Shown here piece after piece: positions 5,148 to 35,969 of a DNA stretch of 54,252 nucleotides. Position numbers and translations under genes: made by a program. How positions within the stretch are numbered: the first letter of the stretch is position 1; each line of letters opens with the position of its first letter. This stretch comes from Patulibacter minatonensis DSM 18081 (GTDB lineage Bacteria; Actinomycetota; Thermoleophilia; Solirubrobacterales; Solirubrobacteraceae), in assembly GCF_000519325.1 (NCBI RefSeq), contig NZ_KI912613.1, forward strand, positions 91,279 to 145,530. Reading direction: 5' to 3'. The notes beneath the pieces were generated by a model, which made no database searches, was not told the DNA's origin, and was given only the letters and a program-made list of their open reading frames with translations.

Positions 5148-5843
5148 GTGGGCATCGCCTCGACGCCCCGCACCGACGCGGCTGCCCCGCCGACCACCGA
5201 CGCTCCGCGGTCCGCCGCGCTCCTGTCGCACCTCGCGCGCCGCATGCGCGTGCGCTCGGAGTCGGCGATGGCGCCGCTCGGTCTGCGTCCGCGGCACCTC
5301 GTGACGCTCACCGTGCTGCGCGACCACGGCGGCAGCACCCAGCAGGCGCTGGCGGGCACGCTGCGGATCGACCGGACGAACCTCGTGGGCCTCCTGAACG
5401 AGCTCGAGGCCCAGGACCTCATCGCCCGCCGGCGCTCCGAGGAGGACCGCCGTCGGCACATCGTCGAGGTCACCGAGGCCGGCCTCGCGCGGCTGGCCGA
5501 GGCCGAGGACGCGCTCGGGGCGGCCGAGGACGAGGTCTTGGCCGGACTCGACGCCGAGCAACGCCGGACCCTGGCGGACCTGCTCGCCCGGGCCACGCGG
5601 GAGGAGTCGGCCGACTGCGTGAGCGAGGCCGTCGACCCGTGCGTGGCGCCGGGTGCAGGGACGGACGACTGCGTGGAGTCGGGCGGCGCGGCCGCGGACG
5701 ACTGCGTGGAGGCGGGCGGCGCGGGCGGGGACGACTGCGTGGAGCCGGGCGGCGCGGGCGGGCCGACCGGGTCGGATCACGTCGTCGAGGAGTGCGTCGA
5801 GGCCGGCACGTCCCCGCAGCCGGGGACGCCGGCACGGGGTTGA
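5148..5843 (+). CDS. MarR-family regulator with cysteine-repeat C-terminal tail
   Basis: Winged-helix regulator of 231 aa. Residues about 25-150 form a normal MarR domain (LRPRHLVTLTVLRDHGG, TLRIDRTNLVGLLNELEAQDLIARR, beta-wing EEDRRRHIVEVT). The remaining 75 residues are unusual: a low-complexity tail containing three perfect-length 11-aa repeats, DDCVExGGAxx, at residues 173-183, 184-194 and 195-205, plus three more cysteines, all spaced along an Asp/Gly/Ala background. The domain itself probably represses azoR through the operator at 5089-5109. The tail could be a redox or metal sensor or simply an expanded repeat. Start GTG 5148 abuts a -10-like TAGACT, so the exact N terminus is uncertain. 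Confidence 0.88.
   Translation: MGIASTPRTDAAAPPTTDAPRSAALLSHLARRMRVRSESAMAPLGLRPRHLVTLTVLRDHGGSTQQALAGTLRIDRTNLVGLLNELEAQDLIARRRSEEDRRRHIVEVTEAGLARLAEAEDALGAAEDEVLAGLDAEQRRTLADLLARATREESADCVSEAVDPCVAPGAGTDDCVESGGAAADDCVEAGGAGGDDCVEPGGAGGPTGSDHVVEECVEAGTSPQPGTPARG
5664..5762 (+). repeat. 33-bp in-frame tandem repeat, three copies
   Basis: Units at 5664-5696, 5697-5729 and 5730-5762 each encode DDCVE(S/A/P)GGA(A/G)(A/G). The copies differ at only a few bases, so the expansion is recent or under homogenisation. Confidence 0.9.
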
Positions 5844-6027: not shown

Positions 6028-7866
6028 TCAGTCCCGCGGCACCGCCACCGTGCCGGCCGCGAACGCCGGGTCGCAGCCCTGGTCGACCGGGAGGCCGATC
6101 CGCAGGAGCGCCGGGCCGTCCGTCGCGAGCCACGTGGCCATCGCGTCGTCGAGGTCCGCAGGGTCGTCGACCGACCACGCCGGGACGCCGAAGCCGGCCC
6201 CGAGCGCGACCCAGTCCAGCCCGGGCAACGAGGAGGCCGCGCGGCGACCGGCGTAGTGCGTGTCCTGCTGCTGGCGGACCATGCCGAGCGACGCGTTGTC
6301 GAACAGGAGGACCTTCACCGGCACGTCCTCGGCGACGGCCGTGGCGAGTTCCTGCAGGTGCATGACCAAGGAGCCGTCGCCGGTGACGCAGACGACCGGC
6401 GGACGGTCGGCGGCGTCGGCCCGGGCGGTCCCGTCGCGGTCGTCGCCGCCCGTCCCCCGGGTCCCGTCGTCGCCCGCCGTCGCCAGCGCCGCGCCGATCG
6501 CCGCGGGCAGGCCGAAGCCCATCGTGCCCAGGCCGCCCGAGGTGACCCAGTTCCGCGGCGCCGCGAAGCGCAGGCGCTGGGCGGCCCACATCTGGTGCTG
6601 GCCGACGTCGGTGGTGACGATCGCCCGGTCGCCCGTCAGCTCGCGCAGGCGGTCGAGGGTCGCCTCGGCGCTGATCGCGTCGTCCGTGTGCTCGAGGCGA
6701 CGGACCGGGTGCTCGGCGCGCCAGGCGGCGATCCGCTGCCACCAGGGGCGCAGCTCGGCGGCGACCTCGCCCTCCTCGGCGAGCGTCCGCAGCGCGTCGG
6801 CGATCCCGGCCAGCGCGGCCTTGGCGTCGCCGACGACCGGGACGTGCGCGGCGACGTTCTTGCCGATCTCGGACGCGTCCGCGTCGACGTGGACGACCCG
6901 GGCGCGCGGTGCGAACGCGTCGAGCCGGCCGGTCACGCGGTCGTCGAAGCGGGCGCCGACGGCGACGATCAGGTCGGCCTCGTGCAGCGCGCGGTTCGCC
7001 GGGGCCGCCCCGTACATGCCGGGCATCCCGAGCCAGCGGACGTCGCCCTGCGGGTAGGCGCCCAGCGCCATCAGCGTCGTGACGACGGGCAGGTCGTGGC
7101 GGCGGGCGAGCGCGGTCAGCTCGGCCTCGGCGCACGCGTGGACGACGCCGCCGCCGGCGTAGAGGACCGGCCGGCGCGCGACGGCGATCGCCTCGGCGGC
7201 GCGGCGCAACTGCCGGCCGTTCGGGGTCTCGCGCGGGCGGTAGCCGGGCAGGTCGACCCCGTCGCGGCCGCCGCGGGACTCCCGCGCGGGCGCCTTCAGG
7301 AGGTCGGACGGCACGTCGACGAGCACCGGACCCGGCCGGCCGCTGCCCGCGATCGCGAAGGCCTCGTGGATCGCGTCCGCGACGTCGTCGGCGCGTTCGA
7401 CCGCGATGCCGTGCTTGACCACGGGCGCGGTCATCCCGATGACGTCGCACTCCTGGAACGCGTTGGAGCCCCGGAGCGTCGTCGGGACCTGCGCGGTGAT
7501 GAAGACCGTCGGCAGCGAGTCGGCGTAGGCGTCGGCGATCGCGGTGACGAGGTTCGTGGCGCCGGGGCCGCTGGTGACGATCGCCACGCCGGTGCGGCCC
7601 GACGCGCGCGCCCAGCCCTCGGCGGCGTGGCCGGCGGCGGCCTCGTGGCGGACGAGGACGTGACGGATCGCGGACGCGTCGATCGCGTCGTGAAGCGCCA
7701 GCGACGCACCGCCCGGCAGCCCGAAGACCGTGTCGACGCCCTCGGCGACCAGGGCCTCCACCAGGCGGTCGGCGCCGCGGAGGGTCGTGTGGTCCCGGGG
7801 CGGCTCGGCGTCACCGGCGGCGGTCGCGGCCGCCGCCGGGTCGGCAGTGCGGTCGGTCGCGCTCAT
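6028..7866 (-). CDS. ilvB: Acetolactate synthase, large (catalytic) subunit
   Basis: Thiamine-diphosphate enzyme of 612 aa that condenses two pyruvates, or pyruvate and 2-ketobutyrate, in valine/leucine/isoleucine synthesis. The catalytic glutamate is E75 in RHEAAAGHAAEG; SGPGATN, NAFQECDVIGMTAPVVKH and the ThDP-Mg motif GDGS (496-499) with DNAS (523-526) are all present. ATG 7866 is chosen because it overlaps the upstream small frame's TGA (ATGA). About 25 residues rich in Gly/Asp/Thr are inserted just before GDGS compared with typical enzymes. No ilvN or ilvC follows, which is unusual; the regulatory subunit must be elsewhere. A leader peptide and attenuator-like fold lie upstream. Confidence 0.93.
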   Translation of the reverse strand: MSATDRTADPAAAATAAGDAEPPRDHTTLRGADRLVEALVAEGVDTVFGLPGGASLALHDAIDASAIRHVLVRHEAAAGHAAEGWARASGRTGVAIVTSGPGATNLVTAIADAYADSLPTVFITAQVPTTLRGSNAFQECDVIGMTAPVVKHGIAVERADDVADAIHEAFAIAGSGRPGPVLVDVPSDLLKAPARESRGGRDGVDLPGYRPRETPNGRQLRRAAEAIAVARRPVLYAGGGVVHACAEAELTALARRHDLPVVTTLMALGAYPQGDVRWLGMPGMYGAAPANRALHEADLIVAVGARFDDRVTGRLDAFAPRARVVHVDADASEIGKNVAAHVPVVGDAKAALAGIADALRTLAEEGEVAAELRPWWQRIAAWRAEHPVRRLEHTDDAISAEATLDRLRELTGDRAIVTTDVGQHQMWAAQRLRFAAPRNWVTSGGLGTMGFGLPAAIGAALATAGDDGTRGTGGDDRDGTARADAADRPPVVCVTGDGSLVMHLQELATAVAEDVPVKVLLFDNASLGMVRQQQDTHYAGRRAASSLPGLDWVALGAGFGVPAWSVDDPADLDDAMATWLATDGPALLRIGLPVDQGCDPAFAAGTVAVPRD

Positions 7867-8135
7867 CGTGTGGCCTCGCTCGGGGTCGTCGTGTCGTCGT
7901 GGCCCGCCGTCGCACCCGTGGCATCCGCCCACGGGGCGCGGTCGGCCGCGGTGAACGACGCCTCCCCCATCCCGACGGCGACCGCGCGCTCGGCCACGAC
8001 GCCGCGGTCGACGCCCGCGAGCGCGAGCTGCGGCGAGGCGACGAGGATCGAGCCGAGGCCGGTGGCCGGGATCGAGGTGCGGTGGGAGCGGGTCTGAGTG
8101 GGGAGCATGGTCGTGTCGGTCGTGGGAGCGCACAC
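7863..8135 (-). CDS. Small hypothetical protein, start-stop coupled to ilvB
   Basis: A 90-aa frame whose stop codon TGA overlaps the ilvB start (ATGA), the classic sign of translational coupling. The sequence (TRSHRTSIPATGLGSILVASPQLALAGV near the N terminus) is not recognised. GTG 8135 has GGGAG 7 nt upstream; ATG 8108 and GTG 8141 are alternatives. It could be a real protein or merely a translated leader that carries ribosomes into ilvB. Codon use is ordinary for the window. Confidence 0.45.
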   Translation of the reverse strand: MCAPTTDTTMLPTQTRSHRTSIPATGLGSILVASPQLALAGVDRGVVAERAVAVGMGEASFTAADRAPWADATGATAGHDDTTTPSEATR

Positions 8136-8190
8136 GAGCACGCTCCCGATGTTCGGGGCGGGCGGCGGACTCTGGAGGCTGAGACGCGGG

Positions 8191-8247
8191 TCCGGCGGGG
8201 CGCCGGTCGCGGTCTATGCCTGGGAGAGACCGGCCGTGAGGCCGGCT
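8191..8247 (-). promoter_or_regulatory. Candidate branched-chain amino acid attenuator upstream of ilvB
   Basis: On the minus strand four segments can pair alternately: 1 = GCCGGCC (8246-8240), 2 = GGCCGGT (8235-8229), 3 = ACCGGCG (8207-8201), 4 = GCCGGA (8196-8191). 1:2, 2:3 and 3:4 pairings exclude one another. Segment 1 begins two bases after the GTA GTA codons of the leader peptide, so a ribosome stalled on valine codons would free segment 2 for an anti-terminator. The 3:4 stem lacks a T-tract. Confidence 0.55.
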
Positions 8248-8327
8248 ACTACGAGCACGCCGAGGCGGACGCCGGAGGCGCCCGCGGAGATACGCGGCGT
8301 GATGTGACGGGAAGTCACGCCCGACAT
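8214..8327 (-). CDS. ilvB leader peptide
   Basis: A 37-aa frame ending in VRLGVLVVAGLTAGLSQA and a TAG at 8214-8216. The control codons read GTG CTC GTA GTA; GTA is rare in this GC-rich genome, which fits a ribosome-stalling run. Actinobacterial ilvB genes are known to be controlled by Val/Leu/Ile leader peptides, so position and composition agree. A GTG at 8318 is an alternative start. AGG lies about 10 nt before ATG 8327. Confidence 0.55.
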   Translation of the reverse strand: MSGVTSRHITPRISAGASGVRLGVLVVAGLTAGLSQA

Positions 8328-8378
8328 GATGCACGACCTGCGCGCGGATCGCCACCCGGGGTCGCCCGACAGCCCTCC

Positions 8379-8415
8379 GTGTCGGGTTCGGTACCCGGGC
8401 GGTACACGATCCGAC
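8379..8415 (+). repeat. 39-bp two-tier hairpin, family A, copy 1
   Basis: Begins GTGTCGGGTTCGGTACC and ends GGTACACGATCCGAC, matching the three copies at 9436-9613 except for a degenerate last arm. It lies in the divergent promoter region between the ilvB leader and the hydrolase gene. Confidence 0.85.
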
Positions 8416-9435: not shown

Positions 9436-9613
9436 GTGTCGGGTTCGGTACCTGGGCGGTACACGATCCGACACGGCCGCCCTCCGGGCGGGCGCCGACC
9501 GCCGCGTGTCGGGTTCGGTACCCGGGCGGTACAGGATCCGACACGACCGCCGTCCGGTCGCGGGGCCGACCGCTGCGTGTCGGGTTCGGTACCTCGGCGG
9601 TACACGATCCGAC
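9436..9613 (+). repeat. Family A hairpin array, three copies at 70-71 bp period
   Basis: Copies at 9436-9474, 9506-9544 and 9577-9613 share GTGTCGGGTTCGGTACC, a TGGGC-like loop and GGTACACGATCCGACAC. The outer arms GTGTCGG/CCGACAC and inner arms GTACC/GGTAC are self-complementary. The 31-32 bp between copies are also related to one another, so this is a 70-bp tandem repeat. The array fills the gap downstream of the hydrolase gene (9384-9816); no gene is visible there. Confidence 0.9.
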
Positions 9614-32813: not shown

Positions 32814-34385
32814 GTGTCATCCCTCCGCCGGCACCGCCGGTCGGCGCCCCGCGTCCTGCGCGTCCGCGTCGCCTCTCCCGTCGCGTCCGGACGCGCGTCG
32901 TCCCGTGGCCGATCGACCGCGGGGCTCCGCCTCGCGCTCGTGACGTTCCTGCTCGCCGCCGTCCCGACCGCCGGCCTGGCCGTCGCCGCCGCCCCCGCGT
33001 CCGCCGCCAAGGGCATGGTCACGACGATGGCCGACGACGGCGTGCTGAACGGCGCGCACGGCGACCCGGCGCCGATCGTGGCCAGGTGGAAGGCCGCCGG
33101 GGTCCAGAACGTGCGGATGTTCGCCCAGTGGTCGCACATCGCCCCGGACCCCGAGGCGACGAAGCCGCCCGCCGGGTTCGACGGGAAGGCAGAGGGCGCG
33201 TACTCCTTCGCGGACCTCGACCGCAAGATCGACCTGATCCGGCAGAACGGCATGACCGTGACGCTCGTCGTCACCGGCCCCGGTCCCGTGTGGGGCTCGC
33301 TCGAGCCCGCCCGCCGGAACCCGCGCTGGCGGCCGAGCCCCACGATGTTCGGGGACTTCGCCACCGCCGTCGCGAAGCACGTGAAGGACCGGGTCGACGA
33401 CTACATCGTCTGGAACGAGCCGAACGTCGCCACCTGGCTGCAGCCGCAGAACATGTGCACCGGCTCGAAGTGCCGCGTGTACTCGCCGCACCTCTACCGC
33501 AAGCTCGCGGCCGCCGGGTACGACGCGATCCACGGTGCGGATCCGGGCTCCACGATCGCGATCGGCGCCACCTCGTCGAAGGGCGACAGGTTCGTCAGAC
33601 GCATGAACGGCACGACGCAGCCGATGGTCTTCCTCCGCGAGCTCGCCTGCGTGGATTCGAAGTACCGCCGGAGGTCGACGGGGGACTGCAGGGGCTTCGT
33701 CGCGCCGAAGGGGAACGTCCTCGCCTACCACCCGCACTCGTCGAAGTACTCGCCCGGGTACACCTCGCCGAGCAGCGGCGACGCGCGGATGGGCGACCTC
33801 TCGCGCCTGACCACGGTCGTCGACCGGCTCACGAAGGCGAAGCGGCTGAAGGTCGTCGGCGCGTCGCGGTTCCCGCTCTGGCTCGACGAGTACGCGTACG
33901 AGACGAACCCGCCGGACACGACGCTCGGGATCTCCCCCGCCGCCCAGGCCGCATGGTCGCAGTGGGGCTGGTGGACCGCATGGCGCAACTCGCGCGTCCA
34001 GATGCTCGCCCAGTACGAGTGGATGGACGAGGGGTCGGAGAACACCGACGACGACCCGAAGGGCTGGCAGTCCGGCCTGTACTTCGACGACGGGCGCGCG
34101 AAGCCGCTGGCGCAGGTGTTCCCCAACCCGATCTTCGGCTACCGCACCACGAAGAGCGCGACGGTCTGGGGCCAGGTCCGCACCGCGACCGGCGCGACGA
34201 AGGTGACGCTGCAACGCGCGTCGGGCGGCAGCTGGAGGGACTACGCCACGGTCACGACCGACGCGCACGGCGCGTTCACCCGCACGGTCCCGCGGTCGAC
34301 CACCGCGAAGTACCGCTACACGTACGTCTCGCCGGTCGACGGGACCACGAGGACGAGCGGGAGCACCGCGCTGCGCAAGCGGTGA
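32814..34385 (+). CDS. Secreted GH-A clan glycoside hydrolase-like protein (copy 1)
   Basis: A 523-aa secreted protein: basic N region and signal peptide (LRLALVTFLLAAVPTAGLAVAAAPASAA), a TIM-barrel domain (about 65-430) and a C-terminal beta-sandwich of about 80 residues (TVWGQVRTATGATKVTLQRASGGSWRDYATVTTDAHGAFTRTVP...). The probable acid/base is E202 in VWNEPNVATW and the nucleophile E359 in LWLDEYAYET, the GH39/GH5-like pattern. GTG 32814 has GAGGAG about 10 nt upstream. It lies 93 nt before a paralogue. Polymer substrate unknown. Confidence 0.85.
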   Translation: MSSLRRHRRSAPRVLRVRVASPVASGRASSRGRSTAGLRLALVTFLLAAVPTAGLAVAAAPASAAKGMVTTMADDGVLNGAHGDPAPIVARWKAAGVQNVRMFAQWSHIAPDPEATKPPAGFDGKAEGAYSFADLDRKIDLIRQNGMTVTLVVTGPGPVWGSLEPARRNPRWRPSPTMFGDFATAVAKHVKDRVDDYIVWNEPNVATWLQPQNMCTGSKCRVYSPHLYRKLAAAGYDAIHGADPGSTIAIGATSSKGDRFVRRMNGTTQPMVFLRELACVDSKYRRRSTGDCRGFVAPKGNVLAYHPHSSKYSPGYTSPSSGDARMGDLSRLTTVVDRLTKAKRLKVVGASRFPLWLDEYAYETNPPDTTLGISPAAQAAWSQWGWWTAWRNSRVQMLAQYEWMDEGSENTDDDPKGWQSGLYFDDGRAKPLAQVFPNPIFGYRTTKSATVWGQVRTATGATKVTLQRASGGSWRDYATVTTDAHGAFTRTVPRSTTAKYRYTYVSPVDGTTRTSGSTALRKR

Positions 34386-34478
34386 GGCGTGGCGGCGCCG
34401 GCGATTCGGCGCCGCCGCCCGACCGGATCCGTAACCTGACGCCCGCGTCGTCCGTGTCCGCCCGTCCCGGAGCTGCTC

Positions 34479-35969
34479 GTGCCATCACCCCGCATGCTCC
34501 GCCGCCCTGGCCTCGCCGTCGCCCTCCTCCTCGCCGCGGCGGCCGGTCCCGCCGCCCTCGCGCCGCCGGCGTCCGCCTCGCACGCCGTCGTCACCACGAT
34601 CGCCGACGACGCGGTCCTGAACGGCGCGCACGGCGACCCGGAGCCGATCGTCGCGCAGTGGCCCGCGGCCGGGATCCGCAACGTGCGGATGTTCGCCCAG
34701 TGGTCGCACATCGCCCCGGACCCGCACGCGCGCCGGCCGCCCTCGGGCTTCGACGGGAAGGCCGACGGGGCGTACTCGTTCCTCGACCTCGACCGCAAGA
34801 TCGACCTCGTGCGCCGGCACGGGATGACCGTGACGCTCGTGATCACCGGGCCGGGGCCGGTCTGGGGATCGCTCGAGCCGAGCCGGAACAACGGGCGCTG
34901 GCGGCCGAGTCCCGCGAGGTTCGGCGATTTCGCCCGCGCGGTGGCGAAGCACACCGCCGACCGCGTCGACGACTGGATCGTCTGGAACGAGCCGAACGTC
35001 TCCACCTGGCTGCAGCCGCAGAACACGTGCCGCGGGCGGGTCTGTCGCGCCGTGTCGCCGGACGCGTACCGCAAGCTCGCCGAGGTCGGCTACGCGTCGA
35101 TCCGCGCGTTCGACCCGACGGGCCGGATCGCGATCGGCGCGACGTCCCCGAAGGGTGACCTCCGTCCGGTCAGGCCCAACGGGACGACGCCGCCGCTGAC
35201 GTTCCTCCGCGCGCTCTCGTGCGTCGACGACCGGTACCGCCGCCTCACGACCGGCGGGTGCCGCGGGTTCCGGGCGCCGAAGGGCAACGTGCTGGCCTAC
35301 CACCCGCACTCCAACGGGTTCTCCCCCGGCTACCGGTCGCCGCGCGCCGCCGACGCGCGGATGGGCGACCTGGGCCGCTTGACCTCCGTCGTGGACCGCC
35401 TGACGCGGATGGGGCGCCTGAAGGTGATCGGCGCCAGGCGGTTCCCGCTGTGGCTCACCGAGTACGGGTACGAGACGAACCCGCCGGAGCGCAAGCGGGG
35501 CGTCAGCGTCGGCACGCAGTCGCTCTACTCGCAGTGGGGCTGGTGGGTCGCCTGGAACACCCCGCGCGTCCAGATGCTCGCTCAGTACGAGTGGATGGAC
35601 GAGGGACCGGTGCAGCAGCAGGTGAACCCGAGCGGCTGGCAGTCGGGGCTGTCCTTCTCCGACGGCCGTCCGAAGCCGATCTCGCTCGCGTTCCCGAACC
35701 CGATCTTCGGCTACCGGACCTCCCGCGCGGGCACGATCTGGGGGCAGGTCCGCACCGCCACCGAACCGCTGACCGTCCAGCTGGAGCGCGCGTCGGTCGA
35801 CGGCTGGGTGCCCGTGAAGACAGCGACGACCGACATCCACGGCGCGTTCGTCGCCCGGGTGCCGAAGGGCTCGAAGGCCCGGTACCGCTACACGTACGTC
35901 TCGCCGGTCGACGGGACGACGGCGAACAGCACCACGGTGGCGCTGCGGTCGCTGACGTCGGCGCGCTGA
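34479..35969 (+). CDS. Secreted GH-A clan glycoside hydrolase-like protein (copy 2)
   Basis: A 496-aa paralogue of the preceding gene, clearly a tandem duplication (shared NVRMFAQWSHIAPDP, RMLAQYEWMDEG-type and RYRYTYVSPVDGTT segments). Signal peptide AVALLLAAAAGPAALAPPASA; catalytic glutamates E171 (VWNEPNVSTW) and E328 (LWLTEYGYET); same C-terminal beta-sandwich. Both copies keep the catalytic residues, so both are probably active and may differ in substrate. GTG 34479 is preceded by GGAG at 7 nt. Confidence 0.85.
   Translation: MPSPRMLRRPGLAVALLLAAAAGPAALAPPASASHAVVTTIADDAVLNGAHGDPEPIVAQWPAAGIRNVRMFAQWSHIAPDPHARRPPSGFDGKADGAYSFLDLDRKIDLVRRHGMTVTLVITGPGPVWGSLEPSRNNGRWRPSPARFGDFARAVAKHTADRVDDWIVWNEPNVSTWLQPQNTCRGRVCRAVSPDAYRKLAEVGYASIRAFDPTGRIAIGATSPKGDLRPVRPNGTTPPLTFLRALSCVDDRYRRLTTGGCRGFRAPKGNVLAYHPHSNGFSPGYRSPRAADARMGDLGRLTSVVDRLTRMGRLKVIGARRFPLWLTEYGYETNPPERKRGVSVGTQSLYSQWGWWVAWNTPRVQMLAQYEWMDEGPVQQQVNPSGWQSGLSFSDGRPKPISLAFPNPIFGYRTSRAGTIWGQVRTATEPLTVQLERASVDGWVPVKTATTDIHGAFVARVPKGSKARYRYTYVSPVDGTTANSTTVALRSLTSAR

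What the first reader, a model, noticed from the sequence alone, without database searches (positions are those of the whole stretch)
8191..8327. Leader-peptide attenuator upstream of ilvB with rare valine codons
A 37-aa frame ends VRLGVLVVAGLTAGLSQA with GTG CTC GTA GTA codons. Immediately after, four segments can form 1:2, 2:3 or 3:4 stems (GCCGGCC, GGCCGGT, ACCGGCG, GCCGGA), the classic three-way switch. GTA is rare at this GC content. If real, it shows regulation of acetolactate synthase by valine/leucine supply in a group where such leaders are poorly known. Unusually, a second 90-aa frame lies between the switch and ilvB.
Basis: partly seen in the sequence, partly recalled or inferred. 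Interest (0 to 1): 0.65.

Follow-up and report, generated by a model that had tools for sequence, protein, structure and literature searches.

The report
Valine leader peptide controlling orphan ilvB
A short upstream reading frame with valine codons that are almost never used elsewhere sits before a stand-alone acetolactate synthase gene in Patulibacter and its relatives, and very probably lets the cell sense its valine supply; it is a variant of a known kind of switch, unusual in having a second small frame that overlaps the enzyme gene in most relatives.

Summary
The leader peptide is real; the three-way RNA switch drawn for it is not supported in this window. The frame starts at a GTG (8318), not the ATG (8327), which overlaps a -10-like box; the message is probably leaderless. 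All 25 relatives with readable upstream DNA (of 27 genomes carrying this ilvB, among 232 searched) have such a frame with in-frame GTA. GTA makes up 39/94 valine codons in 23 such frames, 0/1090 in the matching ilvB genes, and 1 and 0 in the other two frames. Three hairpins exist; the one behind GTAGTA shows compensatory changes. A competing-structure switch is predicted only in three sequences of another genus. The "90-aa frame" is a lineage-specific form of a second leader frame; in 18/18 comparable cases it overlaps ilvB by exactly 22 nt, usually with its own GTA. This ilvB lacks ilvN (0/41 loci, 22 genomes), while the ilvN-linked paralogue (33/33) shows no such leader. Closest known: C. 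glutamicum and M. tuberculosis ilvB attenuators. New variant of a known kind.

The parts
8326..8331 (-). -10-like box CATCAT, 7 nt before the GTG; weak -35-like TGGCGA at 8349-8354 (17 nt spacing)
   Evidence: sequence; CATNAT/CACAAT and a TTGCN/TGGCG box at similar distance in relatives; no transcript data
8214..8318 (-). uORF1, leader peptide MTSRHITPRISAGASGVRLGVLVVAGLTAGLSQA*, probably leaderless GTG start
   Evidence: conserved start and stop, in-frame gaps, in-frame GTA; CM R1 hit at this place in the window genome
8304..8318 (-). P0: GTGAC-N5-GTCAC mini-hairpin at the start codon
   Evidence: both 5-nt arms invariant in 11 of 11 sequences of Patulibacter and g12, so no covariation evidence
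8256..8301 (-). P1: two-part hairpin, outer 8301-8294/8263-8256, inner 8285-8277/8273-8265
   Evidence: cells paired 90.9% outer, 81.8% inner; 1 and 2 pairs with change on both sides
8247..8252 (-). GTA GTA, presumed control codons
8229..8246 (-). P2: hairpin GCCGGCC-TCAC-GGCCGGT directly behind GTAGTA, inside the frame
   Evidence: 4 of 7 pairs with changes on both sides; a hairpin within 0-6 nt of the last GTA in 24 of 24, better than mononucleotide shuffles at z < -2.5 in 13 of 24 (in the window that call chose a longer alternative)
8182..8215 (-). P3: hairpin starting at the uORF1 stop codon, no U-tract
   Evidence: z < -2 for the region in 10 of 23 leaders, window -1.4
8141..8147 (-). Shine-Dalgarno-like GGGAGCG of uORF2, after a C-rich G-poor stretch
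   Evidence: AAGGAGCG-type box in relatives; 30 nt before it average 52% C, 20% G against 36/37% in control
7863..8141 (-). uORF2 (starts GTG 8141 or 8135, or ATG 8108), last 4 nt overlap the ilvB start; in Patulibacter a longer frame with motif (I/V)P(A/S)TGLG
   Evidence: equivalent of the short Val/Leu-rich frame of relatives; no GTA in the window copy
6028..7866 (-). orphan ilvB (biosynthetic acetolactate synthase large subunit, 612 aa), no ilvN beside it
   Evidence: TIGR00118 645 bits against cut-off 538; ilvN absent

Best explanation
uORF1 (8318-8214) is a translated branched-chain amino acid leader peptide, valine first, of a stand-alone ilvB that has no ilvN. Shown by comparison: the frame, its start and stop, its rare Val/Leu/Ile codons, and the hairpin directly behind the last GTA are under selection in Patulibacter and relatives. 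Inferred: the message is leaderless; when charged tRNA-Val reading GTA is short, the ribosome halts on GTAGTA and covers the 5' arm of P2, so P2 (and P1, whose 3' arm it also covers) cannot form and RNA polymerase goes on; when valine is plentiful the ribosome runs to the stop and leaves, P2 and P3 form, and transcription stops or pauses there. In one other genus (g13) the same job appears to be done by a classical antiterminator/terminator pair. Inferred second tier, strongest outside Patulibacter: a second Val/Leu-rich frame (uORF2) overlaps ilvB by a constant 22 nt, so that ilvB translation is coupled to it.
For: In-frame GTA in 23/23 uORF1 plus L178; GTA 39/94 Val codons in uORF1 and 17/78 in uORF2 against 0/1090 in ilvB (Fisher 2e-47, 2e-21), CTT 28/95 and 10/86 against 6/1124, ATT 8/22 and 6/24 against 2/476. 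Frame control: GTA 39/1/0 and 17/0/1 per frame. Gaps in the 11-sequence uORF1 alignment are multiples of 3. P2 covariation 4 of 7 pairs, whole structure 90.9% of cells paired, 0/500 shuffles. uORF1 mean fold z -3.0, 15/23 below -2; upstream control 0.0. GTA-bearing Val/Leu/Ile-rich frame in 22/23 type A loci against 2/36 ilvN-linked loci. CM R1: one strong hit in each of 11 genomes, all before this ilvB. uORF2 stop exactly 22 nt past the ilvB start in 17 cases plus L178. ilvN next door 0/41 against 33/33 loci. CUU and GUA are named control codons in C. glutamicum (PMC11857589, passages); GUA in M. tuberculosis (PMC13236596, passages).
Against: No transcription start, ribosome or reporter data exist here. 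P2 and P3 of the window lack a U-tract, so termination there is not shown. P3 does not respond to a ribosome on the GTA codons in Patulibacter or g12. The permutation test for the g13 switch is only suggestive (8, 12 and 6 of 100 permutations as high, related sequences), and L062, L044 and L064 of the same genus do not show it. The window's uORF2 has no GTA, and its GTG-started frame is broken in L035. Selective-charging theory (PMC1183508, passages) warns that a codon of very low usage can stay well charged, so rarity alone does not prove sensitivity. In S. coelicolor changing candidate ilvB leader codons had no effect (PMC1262725, passages).
Confidence: 0.66

Rival explanations
1. Classical three-way transcription attenuator in the window exactly as first drawn: stalled ribosome on GTA frees segment 2 to pair with segment 3 and so prevents the 3:4 terminator.
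For: Six complementary bases between GGCCGGU and ACCGGC in the window (34/500 shuffles as long). A switch of this logic is predicted in L015, L024 and L061 of genus g13: P3 0.00, 0.01, 0.10 on the control codons and 0.72, 0.69, 0.80 past them.
Against: Window P3 0.94 on and 0.93 past the control codons. 2:3 pairing at chance in 10 of 11 sequences. No U-tract.
Confidence: 0.12
2. Mainly translational control: uORF1 and its hairpins set whether uORF2 is translated, and ilvB translation depends on ribosomes that end uORF2 inside the ilvB start region.
For: Constant 22-nt overlap in one frame in 18/18 comparable cases although uORF2 length varies; several g13 ilvB genes show no Shine-Dalgarno box of their own (read by eye); GTA in 17 of 21 uORF2 read and in L178; the ilvB start region is if anything less structured than chance, mean z +0.76.
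Against: If uORF2 translation drives ilvB, a stall in uORF2 would lower ilvB when valine is short, the wrong direction, unless the stall opens something not seen here. SD accessibility of uORF2 did not change consistently with ribosome position.
Confidence: 0.3
3. Rho-dependent attenuation: the C-rich, G-poor stretch between P3 and uORF2 is a Rho loading site whose exposure depends on ribosomes on uORF1 and uORF2.
For: 30 nt before the SD average 52% C and 20% G in 23 leaders; fewer than 1% of 391 control 30-mers are as skewed. Rho was proposed for mycobacterial cys leaders (PMC1262725, passages).
Against: C-rich spacers before SD boxes may simply keep the site open; no test for Rho was possible.
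Confidence: 0.2
4. Structured RNA element (riboswitch or protein site); the reading frame is incidental.
For: Strong folding and invariant stretches such as GTGAC-N5-GTCAC.
Against: GTA is confined to one frame, gaps keep the frame, peptide ends change freely between genera while GTA stays, no Rfam family matches.
Confidence: 0.05

Closest known systems
Corynebacterium glutamicum ilvBNC leader (ilvB-II motif; leader peptide MTIIRLVVVTARRLP)
   Same: Leader peptide before ilvB, leaderless initiation discussed, control codons CUU and GUA, hairpins overlapping the frame (PMC11857589, passages; PMC10272879, passages).
   Different: There: ilvBNC operon, one uORF of 45-51 nt, terminator with U run. 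Here: orphan ilvB without ilvN beside it, no U-tract in the window, no predicted competition in Patulibacter, second frame overlapping ilvB, no Rfam match.
Mycobacterium tuberculosis ilvB1 attenuator
   Same: BCAA-rich uORF, GUA regulatory codon, ribosome-position logic (PMC13236596, passages).
   Different: There: 166-nt leader, operon with ilvN and ilvC, U-tract terminator with end mapping. Here: no such data, different gene setting, two frames.
Streptomyces and other actinobacterial ilvB leaders of Seliverstov et al. 2005
   Same: Short frames with Ile/Val/Leu codons overlapping a hairpin before ilvB (PMC1262725, passages).
   Different: Reported hairpins carry poly-U runs; class Thermoleophilia does not appear in the passages seen.
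Leaderless polycysteine sORFs of mycobacteria (Canestrari et al. 2020)
   Same: Leaderless small frame rich in the sensed amino acid upstream of the gene (title seen in a reference list; content recalled, paper not held).
   Different: Cysteine, not valine; one frame (recalled).

Membership tests
Actinobacterial ilvB leader-peptide attenuators (C. glutamicum / M. tuberculosis type) | Translated short frame rich in branched-chain codons upstream of ilvB | tested here: met
   (coding evidence only; translation itself not measured)
Actinobacterial ilvB leader-peptide attenuators (C. glutamicum / M. tuberculosis type) | Rare control codons GUA / CUU | tested here: met
   GTA GTA in the window; CTT absent from the window frame but present in 20 of 23 leaders
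Actinobacterial ilvB leader-peptide attenuators (C. glutamicum / M. tuberculosis type) | Competing antiterminator and terminator structures | tested here: not met
   window and the other Patulibacter and g12 leaders; predicted in L015, L024, L061 of g13 only
Actinobacterial ilvB leader-peptide attenuators (C. glutamicum / M. tuberculosis type) | Intrinsic terminator with U-tract before ilvB | tested here: not met
   window: CAGCCTCC follows P3; L015 has CCTTTTCC, L061 TTCC
Actinobacterial ilvB leader-peptide attenuators (C. glutamicum / M. tuberculosis type) | Leads an ilvBN(C) operon | tested here: not met
   ilvN 0/41 loci (22 genomes) for this ilvB, 33/33 loci for the other paralogue
Actinobacterial ilvB leader-peptide attenuators (C. 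glutamicum / M. tuberculosis type) | Expression responds to valine/leucine/isoleucine supply through the leader | not testable with these tools
   needs reporter or RNA-seq
Classical trp-type three-way attenuator (1:2, 2:3, 3:4) | Conserved 2:3 pairing excluding 3:4 | tested here: not met
   for the window
Described RNA families of Rfam 15 (all families, including ilvB-linked motifs and riboswitches) | Match to a covariance model | tested here: not met
   none

The most novel reading that the evidence does not exclude
A two-tier valine sensor for a feedback-free acetolactate synthase: two successive leader peptides, each with GTA control codons, the first acting on transcription through a hairpin occluded by the stalled ribosome, the second coupled to ilvB translation by a fixed 22-nt overlap. 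It would replace the missing IlvN feedback subunit: paralogues without ilvN carry leaders, the paralogue with ilvN shows none. In Patulibacter the second leader has grown into a conserved small protein of unknown use.
Probability: 0.35. Interest if true: 0.65.

Novelty: new variant of a known kind. Interest (0 to 1): 0.5.

Why it matters
It carries leader-peptide control of branched-chain amino acid synthesis into a group where the paper searches returned nothing on it, ties it to an enzyme copy that has no feedback subunit beside it, and shows a tandem arrangement in which a second leader frame overlaps the enzyme gene by a fixed length. The relation "no IlvN, but a leader" makes a direct hypothesis: expression control has replaced enzyme feedback. 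Relatives differ in RNA layout (occluded hairpin, or competing hairpins in g13) while keeping the same codons, a natural series for testing how such switches change.

Tried and rejected
Rejected: ATG 8327 as start (not conserved in all relatives, overlaps the -10-like box). Rejected for the window: three-way switch. Tried: whole-leader folding to the uORF2 start; too GC-rich to be read alone, so the analysis was cut at the end of P3. In one search the P3 of L007 and L012 was mis-assigned by the longer window; one search replaces it. Tried: covariance model R1 over 146 genomes of the family: 11 strong hits, all before this ilvB; the two weak ones (G052:C2 E 0.0018, G159 E 0.0047) have no leader anatomy where I read them and were taken as chance. 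R1 does not reach genera g9, g13, g21, g22, whose leaders I found by reading the upstream DNA of ilvB. Tried: Pfam and NCBIfam on uORF1 and uORF2 peptides, nothing. Phylum-wide search: 396 genomes, no further type A copy outside the family at that cut-off. The genome-contig scan returned mostly other ilvB; its use was one name, Patulibacter, for the contig of L036/L071.

Rows dropped before counts: L047/G127 and G053 (contig ends before the leader); L063/G196 (same leader as L062/G033); L035 and L036 from uORF2 counts (start uncertain); L178 was found later and is not. In one search one type A locus missed the 500-nt limit; I take it to be L007, whose frame lies further up (not listed by the call). 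Weakest points: no expression data; related sequences in all counts; P2 z-scores use mononucleotide shuffles; the permutation test does not reach 5% for any of the three g13 sequences.

Full report
What is there. The ilvB of the window (7866-6028, minus strand) is a biosynthetic acetolactate synthase large subunit (TIGR00118, 645 bits, cut-off 538). The genome holds a second ilvB at C1:4412188-4413867 which is followed by ilvN, and a third, distant relative. I call the window kind type A and the ilvN-linked kind type B. Type A was found in 27 of 232 genomes of the order: 25 (at 59% identity or more to the window protein) and G021 and G053, where they group with type A. It is confined to genera g1, g9, g12, g13, g21 and g22 of the family. 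A contig of genus g1 is named Patulibacter. ilvN lies beside none of 41 type A loci with at least 600 nt downstream (22 genomes, some held as more than one locus), and beside 33 of 33 type B loci (32 genomes).

The leader frame. Of the 27 genomes, 25 have upstream DNA (G127 and G053 end at the contig edge); G196 repeats G033, leaving 24 distinct leaders: 23 and L178. Each has a frame of 18-39 codons whose GTG or ATG start lies, in most, some 6-9 nt behind a -10-like box (CATCAT, CACAAT, CATCCT and the like), hence a probably leaderless message. In the window the frame is 8318-8214.

Codons. In the 23 frames GTA is 39 of 94 Val codons; in the ilvB genes of the same loci it is 0 of 1090. CTT is 28 of 95 Leu codons against 6 of 1124, ATT 8 of 22 Ile codons against 2 of 476, TTA 5 of 95 against 0 of 1124. 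Other rare codons are enriched too but less (Ala GCA+GCT 11/86 against 44/2226; Arg CGA 25/85 against 17/937), so the signal is strongest, not exclusive, for branched-chain codons. GTA counts by frame are 39, 1, 0; CTT 28, 7, 4; TTA, however, is 5, 10, 0, that is, commoner in another frame. All 23 frames, and L178, hold GTA. Among type B loci 12 of 36 have some GTA-bearing frame within 500 nt upstream, but only 2 are rich in Val/Leu/Ile, against 22 of 23 for type A.

RNA structure. uORF1 folds better than dinucleotide shuffles (mean z -3.0, 15 of 23 below -2, window -4.8); the region after the stop less so (mean -1.5, 10 of 23, window -1.4); upstream control 0.0. In the 11-sequence alignment the structure P0, P1, P2 pairs 90.9% of cells; pairs changed on both sides 7 against 2.2 in shuffles, 0 of 500 as high; P2 alone has 4 of 7 such pairs, P0 none because it never varies. 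P2 starts directly behind GTA. A ribosome with GTA in its A site would cover its 5' arm.

Test of the three-way switch. I placed a ribosome footprint (17 nt upstream to 14 nt downstream) on each codon and computed the probability of the hairpin after the stop (P3) on the transcript cut behind P3. In the window P3 stays near 0.9 from the start to the last few codons; 0.94 on and 0.93 past the control codons. The other Patulibacter and g12 leaders likewise show no contrast between control codons and later codons. In g13, L015, L024 and L061 behave as a textbook attenuator (0.00, 0.01, 0.10 on the control codons; 0.72, 0.69, 0.80 past them), and their P3 is followed by CCTTTT, CTCTT or TTCC; synonymous permutations reach the same contrast in 8, 12 and 6 of 100, so this is suggestive only, and L062, L044 and L064 of that genus do not show it.

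The second frame. In every non-Patulibacter leader a Shine-Dalgarno-like box precedes a second short frame, for example MRILAAVLPVVLIPAITAADRS... (L011) or MLLVVLSLDLTALVSS... (L015). Its stop ends exactly 22 nt into ilvB in 17 cases (16 non-Patulibacter and L037) and in L178: 18 of 18, although its length runs from 24 to 36 codons (78 in L037). Part of this constancy comes from the conserved start of ilvB, which supplies the stop; the constant frame does not. GTA is in 17 of 21 of the second frames read and in L178. In Patulibacter the frame is longer, ends at or in the ilvB start codon in L001, L006, L007 and L008, lacks GTA in those four, and carries (I/V)P(A/S)TGLG in the six sequences aligned (in L036 I see the motif by eye only). 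A profile of it finds only Patulibacter plus one weak hit. L037 is intermediate: Val/Leu-rich beginning with GTA and the Patulibacter tail. So the 90-aa frame of the finding is a lineage-specific form of a general second leader frame. The 30 nt before its Shine-Dalgarno box are 52% C and 20% G on average, against 36% and 37% in control.

Mechanism. Most likely: ribosome stalling on GTA in uORF1 prevents P2 (and P1) from forming and lets transcription go on; free passage lets P2 and P3 form. That the frame, codons and P2 are selected is shown; stalling, termination and direction are inferred from established leader-peptide biology. Coupling through uORF2 is inferred from the fixed overlap. In C. 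glutamicum the control codons are named as CUU and GUA and leaderless initiation is discussed (PMC11857589, passages), in M. tuberculosis the regulatory codon is GUA (PMC13236596, passages); the codon choice here is thus the known one. A caution from selective-charging theory (PMC1183508, passages) is that very rare codons need not be sensitive.

Place among known systems. It works like the actinobacterial ilvB attenuators; as a member it fails, in the window, the features of competing hairpins, U-tract and ilvBN(C) operon. No Rfam family matches. My paper searches (listings read, five papers read in passages) found no report of leader peptides for this group or of two tandem branched-chain leaders before ilvB, in a library that lacks most subscription papers.

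Noticed in passing
L172, L173, L175, L212, L214, L215, L216 (upstream of a third ilvB kind, 7 of 232 genomes): A different conserved leader: a short frame ending in Ile/Val codons (for example ...AIAAILIPR*), a hairpin such as CCCCCGCTAGGGGG over its stop, then GATCGATCGTC-like sequence with a complementary GACGATCGG shortly before the ilvB start. This ilvB also lacks ilvN (0 of 7). Looks like an isoleucine/valine leader with a long-range stem near the start; no Rfam match.
   Followed up: partly
window 8380-8415, 9437-9472, 9507-9542, 9578-9613: Imperfectly palindromic repeat TGTCGGGTTCGGTACC-N2-GGCGGTACANGATCCGAC; 21 copies in the genome at up to 3 mismatches, none for the reversed control pattern; clusters at about 70-nt spacing. 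One copy lies just upstream of the leader promoter.
   Followed up: partly
L008 859-1009; G052:C1:1001260-1001415: An extra copy of the Patulibacter uORF2-type small frame upstream of uORF1 in two genomes (one with an internal stop), as if the leader region had been duplicated.
   Followed up: partly
L008 uORF1: The P2 hairpin with its GTA is duplicated in frame; the second copy has compensatory changes (GTCAGCC-TCAC-GGCTGAC against GTCGGCC-TCAC-GGCCGGC).
   Followed up: yes
L002, L040-L043 upstream of the ilvN-linked ilvB: In Patulibacter the ilvBN leader has a hairpin GGCCGTCC...GGCGGCC or alike followed by a T-containing stretch and a possible SD-covering CCCC...GGGG pair, without a leader frame; possibly a separate regulatory element (read by eye).
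   Followed up: no
window 5645-5760: 33-bp tandem repeat (GACGACTGCGTGGAG...GGCGGCGCG) in the 3' part of the reading frame at 5148-5843, giving a D-D-C-V-E repeat tail.
   Followed up: no
window 32924-35930: Tandem duplication of about 1.57 kb, copies 75-90% alike over the reported blocks.
   Followed up: no
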